Below, one piece after another: positions 51,519 to 57,732 of a stretch of 64,000 nt of DNA. The DNA comes from Janthinobacterium sp. J1-1 (GTDB lineage Bacteria; Pseudomonadota; Gammaproteobacteria; Burkholderiales; Burkholderiaceae_D), in the NCBI RefSeq assembly GCF_030944405.1, contig NZ_CP132339.1:6634001-6698000 (forward strand), written 5' to 3'. Positions within the stretch are counted from its first letter, which is position 1. Every line of letters begins with the position of its first letter. Both the position numbers and the translations under genes were made by a program. A model generated the notes under the pieces. That model ran no database searches. It was not told the origin of the DNA and saw only the letters and a program-made list of their open reading frames with translations.

Positions 51519-53188
51519 ATCGCCTCCAGGTTCAGGTCGACCAGCCGGCGCGCCAGCTGTTCCACATAATCTTCATCCTGGCCGCGCGGATGGTTGCGCA
51601 GGCCAAGATGCAGGTATTCATGGGCCAGGGTGATGCGGTCTTCGCGCGTGGCCAGCGGCCGCATGTAGATGCGGTTGCGCGACTGCTCGGAATACGGCGC
51701 GCCGCTCGACAAGGCACAGACCAGTGGCGCTTGCGGCGGCGCCTCGTAGCCGGCCTCGCGCAGCAGCACGCGCCGCCAGCGTGGCACGGACCGGGCCAGC
51801 CAGTCTTCGTTTTGCGCCAGGCGCTGGCAGCGCGCGCCGGTATTGCCAAAGGTGCTCAGCGCGCCGCCCGGGTAGGCGGCCGCCAGCAACTCGTCATAGT
51901 GCTTGCCTTGCCTGGCCTGCCGCACCGCTTCCGTCCACGCCATCGTGCCCTCGGACGGCGTGGTGCTGTGATAGCGCACGGTGACGCCATCGACGATCAA
52001 TTGGTCGGTCCAGCGCGCGATCGCCAGCGCCGCCGGCGTGGCCGGGCTGGGACTGACGCGCTGGGTGGCGCTGCTGTCGGCGATCTGCTGGCAGCCCGCC
52101 ACCGTCACCGCGTTCTGCTGCAGATACGTGCGCGCGGCAATCGCCAGCGCTTTGGCCGCTTCCGGCTCGCCGGCATTCGCTTCGCGGTCCAGCACGCGCG
52201 CCACATATTCATTGACGCCGAAGCGGCCGCGCAATTGCGGGCGGCCACCCTTGTCCTGTACCAGCATCAGTTCGCCGCTGCTGCGCAAGGCCAGGTTCTG
52301 GCCATTTTCAAAGCGCACATGGTAGCGGCCATTGAGCGGCCCGGGTGCGGCAATACCGCGCTCGCCACGCACGGCGCGGATCGGATAGCGCTGGAAGTAA
52401 TCGACCACCACGCAGCCGCCATCGTCGGCCGCGCCCACCGGCGGCAAGCTGGCGGCCAGTCTGGGCGCCCACTGCTCGAACACATTGCTGCTGCCGCCCG
52501 CGCCGCCAAACCAGATCGGCGTGCCATCAGCCAGCCAGCCGGCCGCGCCGCCGATGCGCCCACTCGCCTGATGCCAGGAATAGGTCTTGACGCGCAGTTG
52601 GCTGCCGAACCAGCGGGCCGTACCTGCGCCGCGTCCATCGAGCACCACCCGCAGCAGCGCCGCTTCGGCATCCTGGCGACTGGCAGCCGGAATGCTGCCC
52701 AGCGCGCGCAGCAAGCTGTCCAGGCGCACCGTGCGCTTTGGTGCCAGTTGGGCGGGATCCGCCAGCCAGGCAAAGTCGCCCGCGGGCGCGCTACCCAGGC
52801 GACCGGTCCAGTATTTGCGCCACGGCGCGGCGGTGATCATCAGGCGTTTGGGCGAGAAAAACAGGCCGCAGGACTGCGCCAGCGCCGCGTCGTGGCCTAT
52901 GCTCTGGCCCGCGTCGCAGCAATACACTTCTTCCGGATCACGGCCACCGCAGCGGTAGTCCGGCATCGCCACCTTGCTGTCGCTGGCGTAGACATACACG
53001 AACAGCTTCCACAGGCTGGCCAGCGGCACCTGCCGCGCGCCGTCGAACGGCGGCGGCGCGGCGCCGCCCTGGCGCAGCTGGCGCACTTCCAGCTTGCCGT
53101 CGCGCCACCAGGCCATATCCAGCGAAGCCGCCCACGCAGGCGCGGCCAGCAAGGTGGCAAGCATCAAGGCTGGACGGGCAAAGCGCAT
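51515..53188 (-). CDS. yfaQ: YfaQ-like DUF2300 protein with SxxK, SpoIID-like and HExxH motifs
   Basis: 557 residues from the ATG at 53188 (GTG at 53191 is also possible); signal peptide MRFARPALMLATLLAAPAWA. Three parts are visible. Residues 50-130 hold VPLASLWKLFVYVY, an SxxK box (S58, K61) as in serine beta-lactamase/PBP folds. Residues 320-450 (GRFGVNEYVARVLDRE, AAKALAIAARTYL, RYHSTTPSEGTMAWTE) resemble the SpoIID/LytB amidase-enhancer domain. The C-terminus has LAHEYLHLGL with HEYLH at 523-527, a zincin-type metal motif. Together these point to a role at peptidoglycan or in proteolysis; no activity is proven. Overlaps both neighbours. Confidence 0.82.
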   Translation of the reverse strand: MRFARPALMLATLLAAPAWAASLDMAWWRDGKLEVRQLRQGGAAPPPFDGARQVPLASLWKLFVYVYASDSKVAMPDYRCGGRDPEEVYCCDAGQSIGHDAALAQSCGLFFSPKRLMITAAPWRKYWTGRLGSAPAGDFAWLADPAQLAPKRTVRLDSLLRALGSIPAASRQDAEAALLRVVLDGRGAGTARWFGSQLRVKTYSWHQASGRIGGAAGWLADGTPIWFGGAGGSSNVFEQWAPRLAASLPPVGAADDGGCVVVDYFQRYPIRAVRGERGIAAPGPLNGRYHVRFENGQNLALRSSGELMLVQDKGGRPQLRGRFGVNEYVARVLDREANAGEPEAAKALAIAARTYLQQNAVTVAGCQQIADSSATQRVSPSPATPAALAIARWTDQLIVDGVTVRYHSTTPSEGTMAWTEAVRQARQGKHYDELLAAAYPGGALSTFGNTGARCQRLAQNEDWLARSVPRWRRVLLREAGYEAPPQAPLVCALSSGAPYSEQSRNRIYMRPLATREDRITLAHEYLHLGLRNHPRGQDEDYVEQLARRLVDLNLEAM

Positions 53189-56100: not shown

Positions 56101-57732
56101 CGTGGTAATCGAGCGTTCGATCATCAGCTCGCGCGTCGCCTTGACGCGGTAGGCCGCGCCATCGGTTGCCAGCACAGTCAATATATAGCGCGAGGGATCG
56201 GTGGCGGCCGGCAAAGTGAAATCCAGATTGCCGCTGCCGTCGCTGACGACTTCCTCGGTCTTCAGCGCCACCGGAAACAAGCCGCTATAACGCAGCTCGC
56301 CTTCGACCATGGTGTTTTGCTGGCTGCGCAGCGAGAGGGTCATCTTCGCGTTTTTCACCGGCTTGCCATCCGGGTAGCGCAGCGCGATGCTGCCCTTGAC
56401 CGCCTCGCCCGTCTTGAATTCGGGTTTCGATGGCTGGACATTGATTTCAAAGTGCGGCTTGACATATTCGGCCACGCGGAAGGCCGCGCCATACACGCCG
56501 TCCTTGTAATTGAAGCGCAGCTCATAGCCGCCGGCGGTGGCTTCCCTGGGCAGGCGGAAGCGCGTTTCGGCGCCCGTGTCACCAGACAGCTGCAGCGTTT
56601 GCGTCAGCAGCGGCGTGCCGTTCGGATTGAGCACGCTCAGGCTGATGGGCGCCGCGGCGGCGGCCTGCGAGTTGCGCGCCGAGGTGAATTCGCGACCCAA
56701 GAACTTCACGTTGACTTCGTCGCCGGGGCGGTACAGGGGCCGGTCGGTCACCGCATAGATCTTGGTGTTGTAGATCTCGCTGTCATAGTAGAAATTCTCG
56801 GACACGAACACACCGCCGGCGCGGTCCTGGCCCAGCACATAGGTGTGTTCGGGGCTGCCGCGCTCCATCGAGGCGACCCCGTCGGCGCCGGTGCTGGCCG
56901 ACTGCAGCACGCCGGTGCCGTCGGTCCATGCCACGCTGGCGCCGGCCACGGCGGCGCTGTTGTCGCGCCGTGCGGTCCACACCAGCATCTGGACGGACGA
57001 GACCTTGGTCACCGCCACCGTGTCCGACACGAACACCAGGGTGGTGGCGCGGTGTTCGCCGATGATCGCTTCGATCAGGTACAGGCCCGGCTTGCGCTTG
57101 CCGAGCGGGATCATCACATTGCCGGCGCCGGCGACGATGAATTCGCTGCTGGAGCCATCGAGTTTCACGCCTTTCGGCGGTTCAATCGCCTTCGCCTGCC
57201 ACAACGGATAGCGGAAGCTGTCGACCAGCTCCATGCCCTTGATCGGCTTGTACTGCGGATGGTTGGCAAACACGGTGCGCCGGCGGATCGCGTCATTGGT
57301 CGCCAGTTGCGGCTGCTCTTTTGTCACGGCGAGGCGCGCGTCGCCCGAAAACAGCTTGCGCCAGGCCAGGCGCGACTGCTTCCACCAGCTGTCCCACAAA
57401 AAGCTCAAGGTGTTGGCCAGGCCTTCGCCCTGGTAATTGCCTTCGACCTGGATGCGGTGCAGATTGCGCTGCTTCTTCAAAAACTCCATCGGTTCGGGCA
57501 CGCGGTAGACGACGATGTCGGCGCCCGAATACGCTTCCAGGTTCATGCGCCCCATGTCGCGGCCCGGCACTTCCAGGCGCACGCGCGCTTCGTCGGCGCT
57601 GCCGTAGCTGGCGTCCGACAGCAGGAAGAACGGCTCGCCCTTGAAGGTCGTGTAATTGCTTGGCTGGCGTTCCTGCGCCGAGGCGCCAGCCATCAGCACG
57701 AACGCCAGCAAACTCGCAAAAAGCAGCTTCAT
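53188..57732 (-). CDS. yfaS: Periplasmic alpha-2-macroglobulin, YfaS/MagD type, with CVEQ thioester motif
   Basis: 1514 residues, signal peptide MKLLFASLLAFVLMAGASA without lipobox Cys, so probably soluble or complex-bound in the periplasm. Macroglobulin (MG) domains are visible in TDRPLYRPGDEVNVKFLGRE, YRPGDTAEALITFSDKVD and VYQPGEKVTLDVKATLDGKP. The alpha-2-macroglobulin core follows: TAYWAPSLKTDASGNARVSF, TMPDALTRWRITGRAMDD, then IDYPYGCVEQTASRLIPLVL with C1053-V-E-Q1056, the thioester site. Such proteins trap proteases through a covalent thioester. ATG at 57732 overlaps the yfaT stop; the frame is open further upstream but that part is yfaT antiframe. Downstream yfaQ start overlaps the stop. 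An opposite-strand open frame of similar length is a GC-bias shadow. Confidence 0.93.
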   Translation of the reverse strand: MKLLFASLLAFVLMAGASAQERQPSNYTTFKGEPFFLLSDASYGSADEARVRLEVPGRDMGRMNLEAYSGADIVVYRVPEPMEFLKKQRNLHRIQVEGNYQGEGLANTLSFLWDSWWKQSRLAWRKLFSGDARLAVTKEQPQLATNDAIRRRTVFANHPQYKPIKGMELVDSFRYPLWQAKAIEPPKGVKLDGSSSEFIVAGAGNVMIPLGKRKPGLYLIEAIIGEHRATTLVFVSDTVAVTKVSSVQMLVWTARRDNSAAVAGASVAWTDGTGVLQSASTGADGVASMERGSPEHTYVLGQDRAGGVFVSENFYYDSEIYNTKIYAVTDRPLYRPGDEVNVKFLGREFTSARNSQAAAAAPISLSVLNPNGTPLLTQTLQLSGDTGAETRFRLPREATAGGYELRFNYKDGVYGAAFRVAEYVKPHFEINVQPSKPEFKTGEAVKGSIALRYPDGKPVKNAKMTLSLRSQQNTMVEGELRYSGLFPVALKTEEVVSDGSGNLDFTLPAATDPSRYILTVLATDGAAYRVKATRELMIERSITTYQLKATRQFSDPGQAVHFDLLADGQGAAKPVRWEMVQLEKQTKTDGAFDPNAKGWDVTFPASGSYQLALRDERGNLLAAASHWVSGDGVQATPGSIEIVLDRARYRPGDTAEALITFSDKVDQALFTLERDKVEHHGLMAGSAEWYQAKRVAPRQWRVRIPVKEEHGPNMTFSVAYTRNGDFVFENAGLQVIEPRIALQFKADKEVYQPGEKVTLDVKATLDGKPLSTMVALGVVDEMIYVLQPEIAPEIGDFFYHPRRNNVRTTASLSFISYDMAQGRTAGAPARHNYNERGVKVLERPRRDNIDTAYWAPSLKTDASGNARVSFTMPDALTRWRITGRAMDDQGRVGQRTGYLRSDKSFYAKWTAPDWMRAGDAPRASVAVFNQTGKEQALDVTLSGAGGTQTKTEKLSAKPGVNYVEFPLAAGSGPLRLELKQNGKVVDALDTAMQTLPAAWSSPRSLVLPLDGATGELALKLPADARNIRVAFTQGAASQFARIADDLIDYPYGCVEQTASRLIPLVLATQSLGPDAGAPYERLQATLTAQRLRLVSMAGPKAVFGWWGNATAGNALMTAYAYYADWYASRALRIELPAEHWNKLLAVYSESGLKDPLGDRALVLWMAHEMGLPTQTLASGLVDDSAIATLGGKPRQPGDSGSLLLGGAADREAQAMSLGLVALVAAQNGIALPHSLQLQVASAWQVLRESKAPVAQALLMLAGEVPATQAEAVLASVRAEMPTLDRAMTLMWVQKKLGGVAFGKGLTLALDGAWQKRDSRSGQAVWRWTDAKAVPDKLRLSASTPAPAGTVAVVQYDSHAAETQTLPVTVERRILRMKAGKGGYTTELVKPGEALSTDALYLDEITLKAAPGTKHRFGLLEVALPPGAMVESTTWGMVMAGDKPAALERARHTERRDGYAVPVEPLEGDVTVRHLIRFAQKGSYVLPPARFYRMYQPEQKAFEGSGKTTRALKVE

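What the first reader, a model, noticed from the sequence alone, without database searches (positions are those of the whole stretch)
53188..57732. YfaS/MagD-type alpha-2-macroglobulin that keeps a thioester
The six-gene operon context is the YfaS/MagD one, and as I recall the published description of that class the CxEQ thioester is usually absent, unlike the pbpC-linked YfhM class. Here CVEQ (C1053-Q1056) is intact inside PYGCVEQTASR. If this holds, the operon could use covalent protease trapping rather than only conformational binding, and would be an intermediate between the two known bacterial classes.
Basis: partly seen in the sequence, partly recalled or inferred. Interest (0 to 1): 0.8.

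Follow-up and report, generated by a model that had tools for sequence, protein, structure and literature searches.

The report
Protease trap that keeps its thioester
A large bacterial protein thought to trap attacking proteases belongs to a group described in print as lacking the chemical "glue" bond for holding them, yet it carries the bond's motif intact, as do most of the relatives examined here, while the two best-known members of the group lack it.

Summary
Observation confirmed: the minus-strand gene 53188-57732 encodes a 1514-residue alpha-2-macroglobulin with YPYG-C1053-V-E-Q1056; C1053 is its only cysteine. It lies in the full YfaS/MagD operon and branches with the YfaS/MagD class, far from the pbpC-linked YfhM class, so it is no intermediate. 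The premise that the class usually lacks CxEQ fails: 77 of the 80 nearest loci, 9 of 14 in an even phylum draw and 218 of 300 full-length homologues carry it. E. coli YfaS and, as published, MagD lack it; the tree needs at least 12 changes of state. A blind scan of 1440 columns for residues that change with the cysteine ranked Met1493 first: the counterpart of the methionine that shields the thioester in a solved YfhM-type structure (PMC4498604). Correlated-evolution LR 38.6, first of 199 columns. Best reading: a real, shielded thioester, hence covalent capture, ancestral to the class and lost repeatedly. The bond itself is not shown.

The parts
53188..57732 (-). YfaS/MagD-class alpha-2-macroglobulin, 1514 aa, signal-peptide-like N-terminus (by eye)
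   Evidence: translation; Pfam MG2, A2M_BRD, A2M, bMG10 over cut-off; 45% identical to E. coli YfaS over its length
54565..54588 (-). thioester motif Y1049-P-Y1051-G-C1053-V-E-Q1056
   Evidence: aligned with YfhM YPYGCLEQ and nine other YfhM-type proteins
53251..53256 (-). Met1493-Tyr1494, counterpart of the C-terminal shield pair (SaA2M Met1625-Tyr1626, per PMC4498604)
53836..54633 (-). thioester domain (residues about 1034-1299)
   Evidence: AlphaFold2 model; model residues about 190-455 match C4d, C3d and C5 TE-domain entries
55195..55278 (-). probable bait segment (residues about 819-846; HNYNERG 831-837 aligns with ANRSERG of Pseudomonas relatives, the string substituted in MagD), ending in RPRR 843-846
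   Evidence: MagD bait from PMC5764988 section 5; alignment; limits inferred
58400..60010 (-). DUF2138 protein (YfaA family)
   Evidence: NCBIfam PRK11410
57729..58436 (-). DUF1175 protein (YfaT family), weak NlpC/P60 match under the cut-off
51515..53191 (-). DUF2300 protein (YfaQ family) with SpoIID match
50721..51518 (-). DUF2135 protein (YfaP family)
49964..50728 (-). second DUF2135 protein; start codon not settled

Best explanation
This is a YfaS/MagD-class periplasmic alpha-2-macroglobulin that forms an internal Cys1053-Gln1056 thioester, kept from water by a pocket of Tyr1049, Tyr1051 (thioester domain) and Met1493, Tyr1494 (C-terminal MG domain). Cleavage of the bait segment by a protease that enters the periplasm frees the thioester domain, uncovers the bond and joins the protease covalently to Gln1056, while the operon partners hold and position the A2M as Mag proteins do for MagD. 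The thioester is the ancestral state of the class; it has been lost many times, including in E. coli and in 19 of 24 genomes of the Pseudomonas aeruginosa group, which made the class look thioester-free. Shown here: motif, operon, class, repeated change of state, coupling of Cys and Met. Inferred: bond formation, covalent capture, location, the role of the partners.
For: C1053 is the only Cys of the protein; 83 of 93 Cys-bearing representatives have exactly one Cys after residue 40 of the aligned span, and 27 of 33 Cys-less ones have none, so an internal disulphide is excluded for most. All four pocket positions match YfhM and the nine other YfhM-type proteins aligned. Met is present in 92 of 93 Cys-bearing but 10 of 33 Cys-less representatives; in a blind scan it came first of the 1439 other columns, on average 7.4 of 12 independent pairs going the same way and 0 the other way. 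Correlated-evolution test LR 38.6 (df 4, p 8e-8), first of 199 columns; 195 control columns median 4.1, maximum 20.2; fitted Met loss 4.04 without Cys against 0.10 with Cys. It holds on the 126 representatives (45.8) and without Pseudomonas (26.9). The predicted structure of residues 845-1514 (pLDDT 87, pTM 0.83) matches native E. coli and Salmonella A2M first in Foldseek; in the second look rmsd is 6.0-7.2 A to these and about 18 A to the cleaved forms. YfhM-type matched control: CxEQ in 120 of 120.
Confidence: 0.8

Rival explanations
1. The motif is a relic: the Cys is kept by inertia, no thioester forms, and the protein traps proteases only by shape change, as reported for MagD.
For: Loss is frequent: at least 12 changes on the tree. 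Outside the GGVINT/GGVVNT group, 23 of 23 Cys-less representatives keep Glu1055 and 22 of 23 keep Gln1056, so parts of the motif have other roles. MagD works without it (PMC5764988).
Against: Met1493 follows the Cys far more closely than 195 control columns, and the thioester Cys is the only one after residue 40 in 83 of 93 Cys-bearing representatives. A relic would not hold a distant shield residue.
Confidence: 0.12
2. The thioester forms but its target is not, or not only, the protease: it anchors the A2M to a partner protein of the operon or to the cell wall. (Overlaps in part with the best explanation.)
For: The operon holds a DUF2300/SpoIID protein and a DUF1175 protein with a weak NlpC/P60 match, domain names that hint at the wall; Mag proteins form a complex (PMC5764988 abstract).
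Against: Same pocket and native-state fold as protease-trapping YfhM-type proteins; the partner families are also present at the 3 Cys-less loci L057, L058, L115.
Confidence: 0.15
3. It is a YfhM-class gene, or a hybrid of the two classes, that moved into a YfaS operon.
For: It shares CxEQ and YPYG with YfhM.
Against: The 149 class II rows, this one included, stand apart from 10 YfhM-type rows (support 99, branch 1.42); 45% identity to E. coli YfaS over the whole length against 29% over residues 599-1064 to the genome's own YfhM-type gene; no penicillin-binding domain in the 8 genes tested here, while the other gene has such a neighbour.
Confidence: 0.01

Closest known systems
MagD and the magABCDEF operon of Pseudomonas aeruginosa (PMC5764988: abstract, passages and section 5 seen)
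   Same: same A2M class and a six-gene operon; bait at the matching place
   Different: MagD is reported to lack CxEQ and to hold a protease non-covalently; the window protein has CVEQ and the shield Met. The P. aeruginosa gene itself was not picked out by name here; relatives with its bait string were seen both with and without the Cys
Escherichia coli YfaS (yfaA-yfaT-yfaS-yfaQ-yfaP)
   Same: 45% identical over the length, same neighbour families
   Different: YfaS reads WGGVINT with Ser for the shield Met; pseudogene in K-12; one DUF2135 gene instead of two
E. coli YfhM (ECAM) and Salmonella SaA2M, pbpC-linked class (PMC4498604 and PMC3328433: passages seen)
   Same: CxEQ, two Tyr before the Cys, Met-Tyr pair at the C-terminus, native-state fold
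   Different: separate class by tree; yfhM lies beside pbpC and sseA; 120 of 120 listed relatives of this genome's YfhM-type protein keep CxEQ
Animal thioester proteins (TEP1, A2M, C3, C4) and thioester-free C5
   Same: fold and, for TEP1, the thioester site by sequence; loss of the bond within the superfamily is known from C5 (recalled)
   Different: in animals all four shield residues sit in the C-terminal domain (PMC4498604, passage)

Membership tests
YfaS/MagD class by descent | groups with YfaS/MagD-class proteins and not with YfhM | tested here: met
   class II node holds exactly the 149 class II rows, support 99
YfaS/MagD class by descent | operon with DUF2138, DUF1175, DUF2300 and DUF2135 genes | tested here: met
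   the same four families found by tblastn somewhere in the fetched flanks of 76 of 80 loci (exceptions L071, L073, L076, L086; order and strand not checked)
Type II A2M as printed (PMC5764988) | lacks the CXEQ thioester motif | tested here: not met
   CVEQ at 1053-1056; so filed as a thioester-bearing variant of the class, not as Type II in that sense
Type II A2M as printed (PMC5764988) | non-covalent retention of the protease | not testable with these tools
   needs purified protein
Type I / YfhM class | CXEQ motif with shield Tyr/Tyr and Met-Tyr | tested here: met
Type I / YfhM class | gene next to pbpC | tested here: not met
   no penicillin-binding domain among the 8 genes tested between 49964 and 63652; the genome's other A2M has such a neighbour
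Type I / YfhM class | branches with YfhM | tested here: not met
functional thioester protein | methylamine-sensitive Cys-Gln thioester | not testable with these tools
   needs purified protein

The most novel reading that the evidence does not exclude
In this A2M class the thioester behaves as a switch that evolution turns off and, at least once, on again: it was lost on many branches, and in the Pseudomonas citronellolis/knackmussii branch the Cys (TGC, one base from the GGC of its Cys-less sisters) and, later, the shield Met came back inside a Cys-less clade.
Probability: 0.35. Interest if true: 0.78.

Novelty: new variant of a known kind. Interest (0 to 1): 0.6.

Why it matters
The printed rule that operon-borne bacterial A2Ms lack a thioester and trap by another mechanism was drawn from members such as MagD. 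If the bond is real in most of the class, the rule describes derived lineages, and the operon becomes a natural series for asking what a thioester adds to a trap: same partner families, same bait position, bond present or absent, with many independent transitions. The solitary Cys makes the chemistry unusually easy to assay.

Tried and rejected
Tried and rejected: (1) YfhM-class membership or hybrid. (2) A Type I gene in the same genome as the reason for Cys loss: of the 14 even-draw genomes, 0 of the 5 Cys-less and 4 of the 9 Cys-bearing ones had a strong YfhM-type match; of the 25 aeruginosa-group genomes, 23 gave only their class II gene as match, one gave that and a further A2M-like place, one gave none. 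So no support. (3) A recombined tract as source of the Cys in the citronellolis group: windows of 60 residues showed none; in windows of 15 residues the motif flank (L131 residues 1009-1038) is nearer to the Cys-bearing alcaligenes-like set than to the PWGG sister group (0.81 and 0.90 against 0.67 and 0.85), so a short conversion is not excluded. (4) One single change of state in Pseudomonas: rejected by AU test on 35 of the 82 Pseudomonas rows, p 1.2e-13 (there the Met column was meant to be left out, but the string was not found and another column was dropped instead). (5) Regain elsewhere: without Pseudomonas a loss-only model fits as well as a reversible one (LRT 0.00); the reversible model is preferred only through Pseudomonas (LRT 12.7 on 126 representatives; 12.9 on 149 rows). 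(6) Budd et al. 2004, the founding survey, is not held; [quoted passage not shown]

Failed or partial scripts: one search ended with an error after the protein table was printed and was completed; one search failed when saving its results, printed no test result, and was repeated, which its own time limit stopped after 199 of 229 columns. In one search the line 'type I monophyletic: False' was printed; I take it as an effect of rooting on that group, because the class II node holds exactly the 149 class II rows.
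Full report
Observation. The gene is on the minus strand at 53188-57732 and encodes 1514 residues. C1053-V-E-Q1056 is present in DYPYGCVEQTASR, and C1053 is the only cysteine of the whole protein. Pfam finds MG2, bait-region, A2M and bMG10 domains. The neighbours on the same strand are DUF2138, DUF1175, DUF2300 and two DUF2135 genes, the same families as yfaA-yfaT-yfaS-yfaQ-yfaP of E. coli, with a second DUF2135 gene. The nearest named homologues are Janthinobacterium and Duganella.

Class. The protein is 45% identical to E. coli YfaS along its length. In a tree of 149 class II members and 10 YfhM-type proteins the class II node holds exactly those 149 rows, branch length 1.42, support 99 (FastTree, motif and Met columns left out). 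The genome carries a second A2M, of YfhM type, beside a gene with transglycosylase, transpeptidase and BiPBP_C domains. So the window gene is not an intermediate.

How common is the motif? In print, Type II A2Ms 'lack the thioester' (PMC5764988, abstract and passages), or 'in many species' do not carry it (PMC3328433, passage). Here: the 17 class members found in 17 of 41 genomes of this and related lineages all have CVEQ (L003-L019, own included). Of the best 120 proteins to the window query (a capped list out of 1498), 119 covered the site: 99 CxEQ, 20 not. Of the 80 loci kept out of 446 in the species collection, 77 have CxEQ (47 CVEQ, 27 CAEQ, 3 CTEQ) and 3 do not; these are the nearest 80, a bias towards the query. 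In an even draw of 398 genomes of the phylum 15 had the gene, the window's own included; of the other 14, 9 have CxEQ and 5 do not. In the aeruginosa-group genus 24 of 25 genomes have the gene: 5 PYGCVEQ, 16 PWGGVEQ, 2 PYCGVEQ, 1 PYGGVEQ; the group is named from rows identical to named Pseudomonas proteins. With E. coli YfaS as query, 102 of the 120 listed proteins covered the site; those named E. coli, Serratia or Yersinia among them read GGVINT or GGVVNT. Control: the matched search with the genome's YfhM-type protein gave CxEQ in 120 of 120 listed. So the bond is fixed in one class and labile in the other, at this depth of sampling.

History. Of 358 class II sequences gathered, 58 were dropped as partial or rearranged; of 300 full-length ones 218 have CxEQ and 82 do not. 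The set is gathered round two queries and is not random. On a tree of 126 representatives the state changes at least 12 times, as many as branches of high local support alone force; 15 losses are needed on the 149-row tree if no regain is allowed. The likelihood model puts the Cys at the class root with 0.94. Of the 115 loci in the full-length set 90 have Cys (85 TGC, 5 TGT); the replacements are Gly (GGC 19, GGT 2, GGG 1, GGA 1) and Ser (AGC 2), so 23 of 25 are one base from a Cys codon. Within Pseudomonas the Cys-bearing citronellolis/knackmussii group (23 rows) is nested in a Cys-less clade, and a single change is rejected. Its basal members have Cys with Leu1493, its derived members Cys with Met1493. 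A model with regain is preferred (LRT 12.9), but only because of Pseudomonas. The same model puts the Cys at only 0.02 in the ancestor shared with Enterobacterales, so that it would make the other Cys-bearing Pseudomonas regained too; I trust that less, since five or so parallel losses explain the same data.

Is the thioester functional? For each of 1440 alignment columns I asked whether it changes together with the Cys on independent branches. Apart from the Cys itself the first was Met1493, 440 residues away. The passages of PMC4498604 were read in the same turn, after the first partial printout of the scan: Met1625-Tyr1626 of the C-terminal domain, with Tyr1175 and Tyr1177, form the pocket that protects the thioester of Salmonella A2M, and E. 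coli YfhM has Met1634 there. The alignment puts YfhM ESMYVPQ on window YRMYQPE, and YPYGC on YPYGC. A formal correlated-evolution test gave LR 38.6 for Met1493 (first of 199 columns tested of 229; 195 controls median 4.1, 95% 10.1, maximum 20.2 at Thr1282). Of the two pocket Tyr tested, Tyr1051 gave 13.5 and Tyr1049 6.0 (within the control range); Tyr1494 was not tested. The Met result stays high on the representatives alone (45.8) and without Pseudomonas (26.9). Met is held while Cys is present and drifts to Leu, Val, Ser, Thr, Ala or Ile in 23 of 33 Cys-less representatives. That is what selection for a shielded thioester predicts and what a relic does not. Exceptions: 10 of 33 Cys-less representatives keep Met, and 10 of 217 Cys-bearing sequences have Leu or Ile.

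Mechanism, shown and inferred. Shown: motif, solitary Cys, pocket residues, coupling, class and operon. Reported for relatives: bait cleavage exposes the YfhM-type thioester (PMC4498604, passages); MagD is cleaved at its bait, keeps the protease, and binds MagA, MagB and MagF (PMC5764988, abstract and section 5). Inferred: the window protein does both, adding a covalent bond to the protease. Whether the target is always a protease is open.

Novelty. Seven searches of the paper library listed no paper whose title or abstract start reports a thioester as the common state of operon-borne A2Ms or the Cys-Met coupling; of the listed papers I opened only the three cited, and only in part. Budd 2004 could not be read, and PMC3328433 implies that some members with the motif were known. 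So the single protein is ordinary for its family; the surprise lies in the family.

Noticed in passing
L133 and L142 (aeruginosa-group genomes), motif site: PYCGVEQ: a Cys stands one residue before the thioester position (codons TGC GGC, against GGC TGC in L136), in an otherwise Cys-less clade with Leu1493.
   Followed up: partly
window residues 1282 and 1060 (codons 53887-53889 and 54553-54555, minus strand): Thr1282 and Arg1060 rank second and third in the correlated-evolution test with the Cys (LR 20.2 and 17.3); their role is unknown.
   Followed up: no
window 55195-55206, minus strand: RPRR (residues 843-846), next to the probable bait, is identical in 300 of 300 full-length class members, unusual beside a region expected to vary; one of the two patterns used to fetch the 80 loci contains it, so those loci are biased towards it.
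   Followed up: partly
window 44376-49564, minus strand: A complete rRNA operon (16S, two tRNAs, 23S, 5S) lies about 400 bases downstream of the A2M operon on the same strand.
   Followed up: no
L152:3558-11617, minus strand (same genome, C1 about 5.86 Mb): A YfhM-type A2M with PYTCFEQ next to a PbpC-like gene: the genome has both A2M classes, both with thioester motifs.
   Followed up: partly
window 51515-53191 and 57729-58436, minus strand: The DUF2300 partner carries a SpoIID match, and the DUF1175 partner a weak NlpC/P60 match, hinting at peptidoglycan or peptidase work for partners of unknown function.
   Followed up: no
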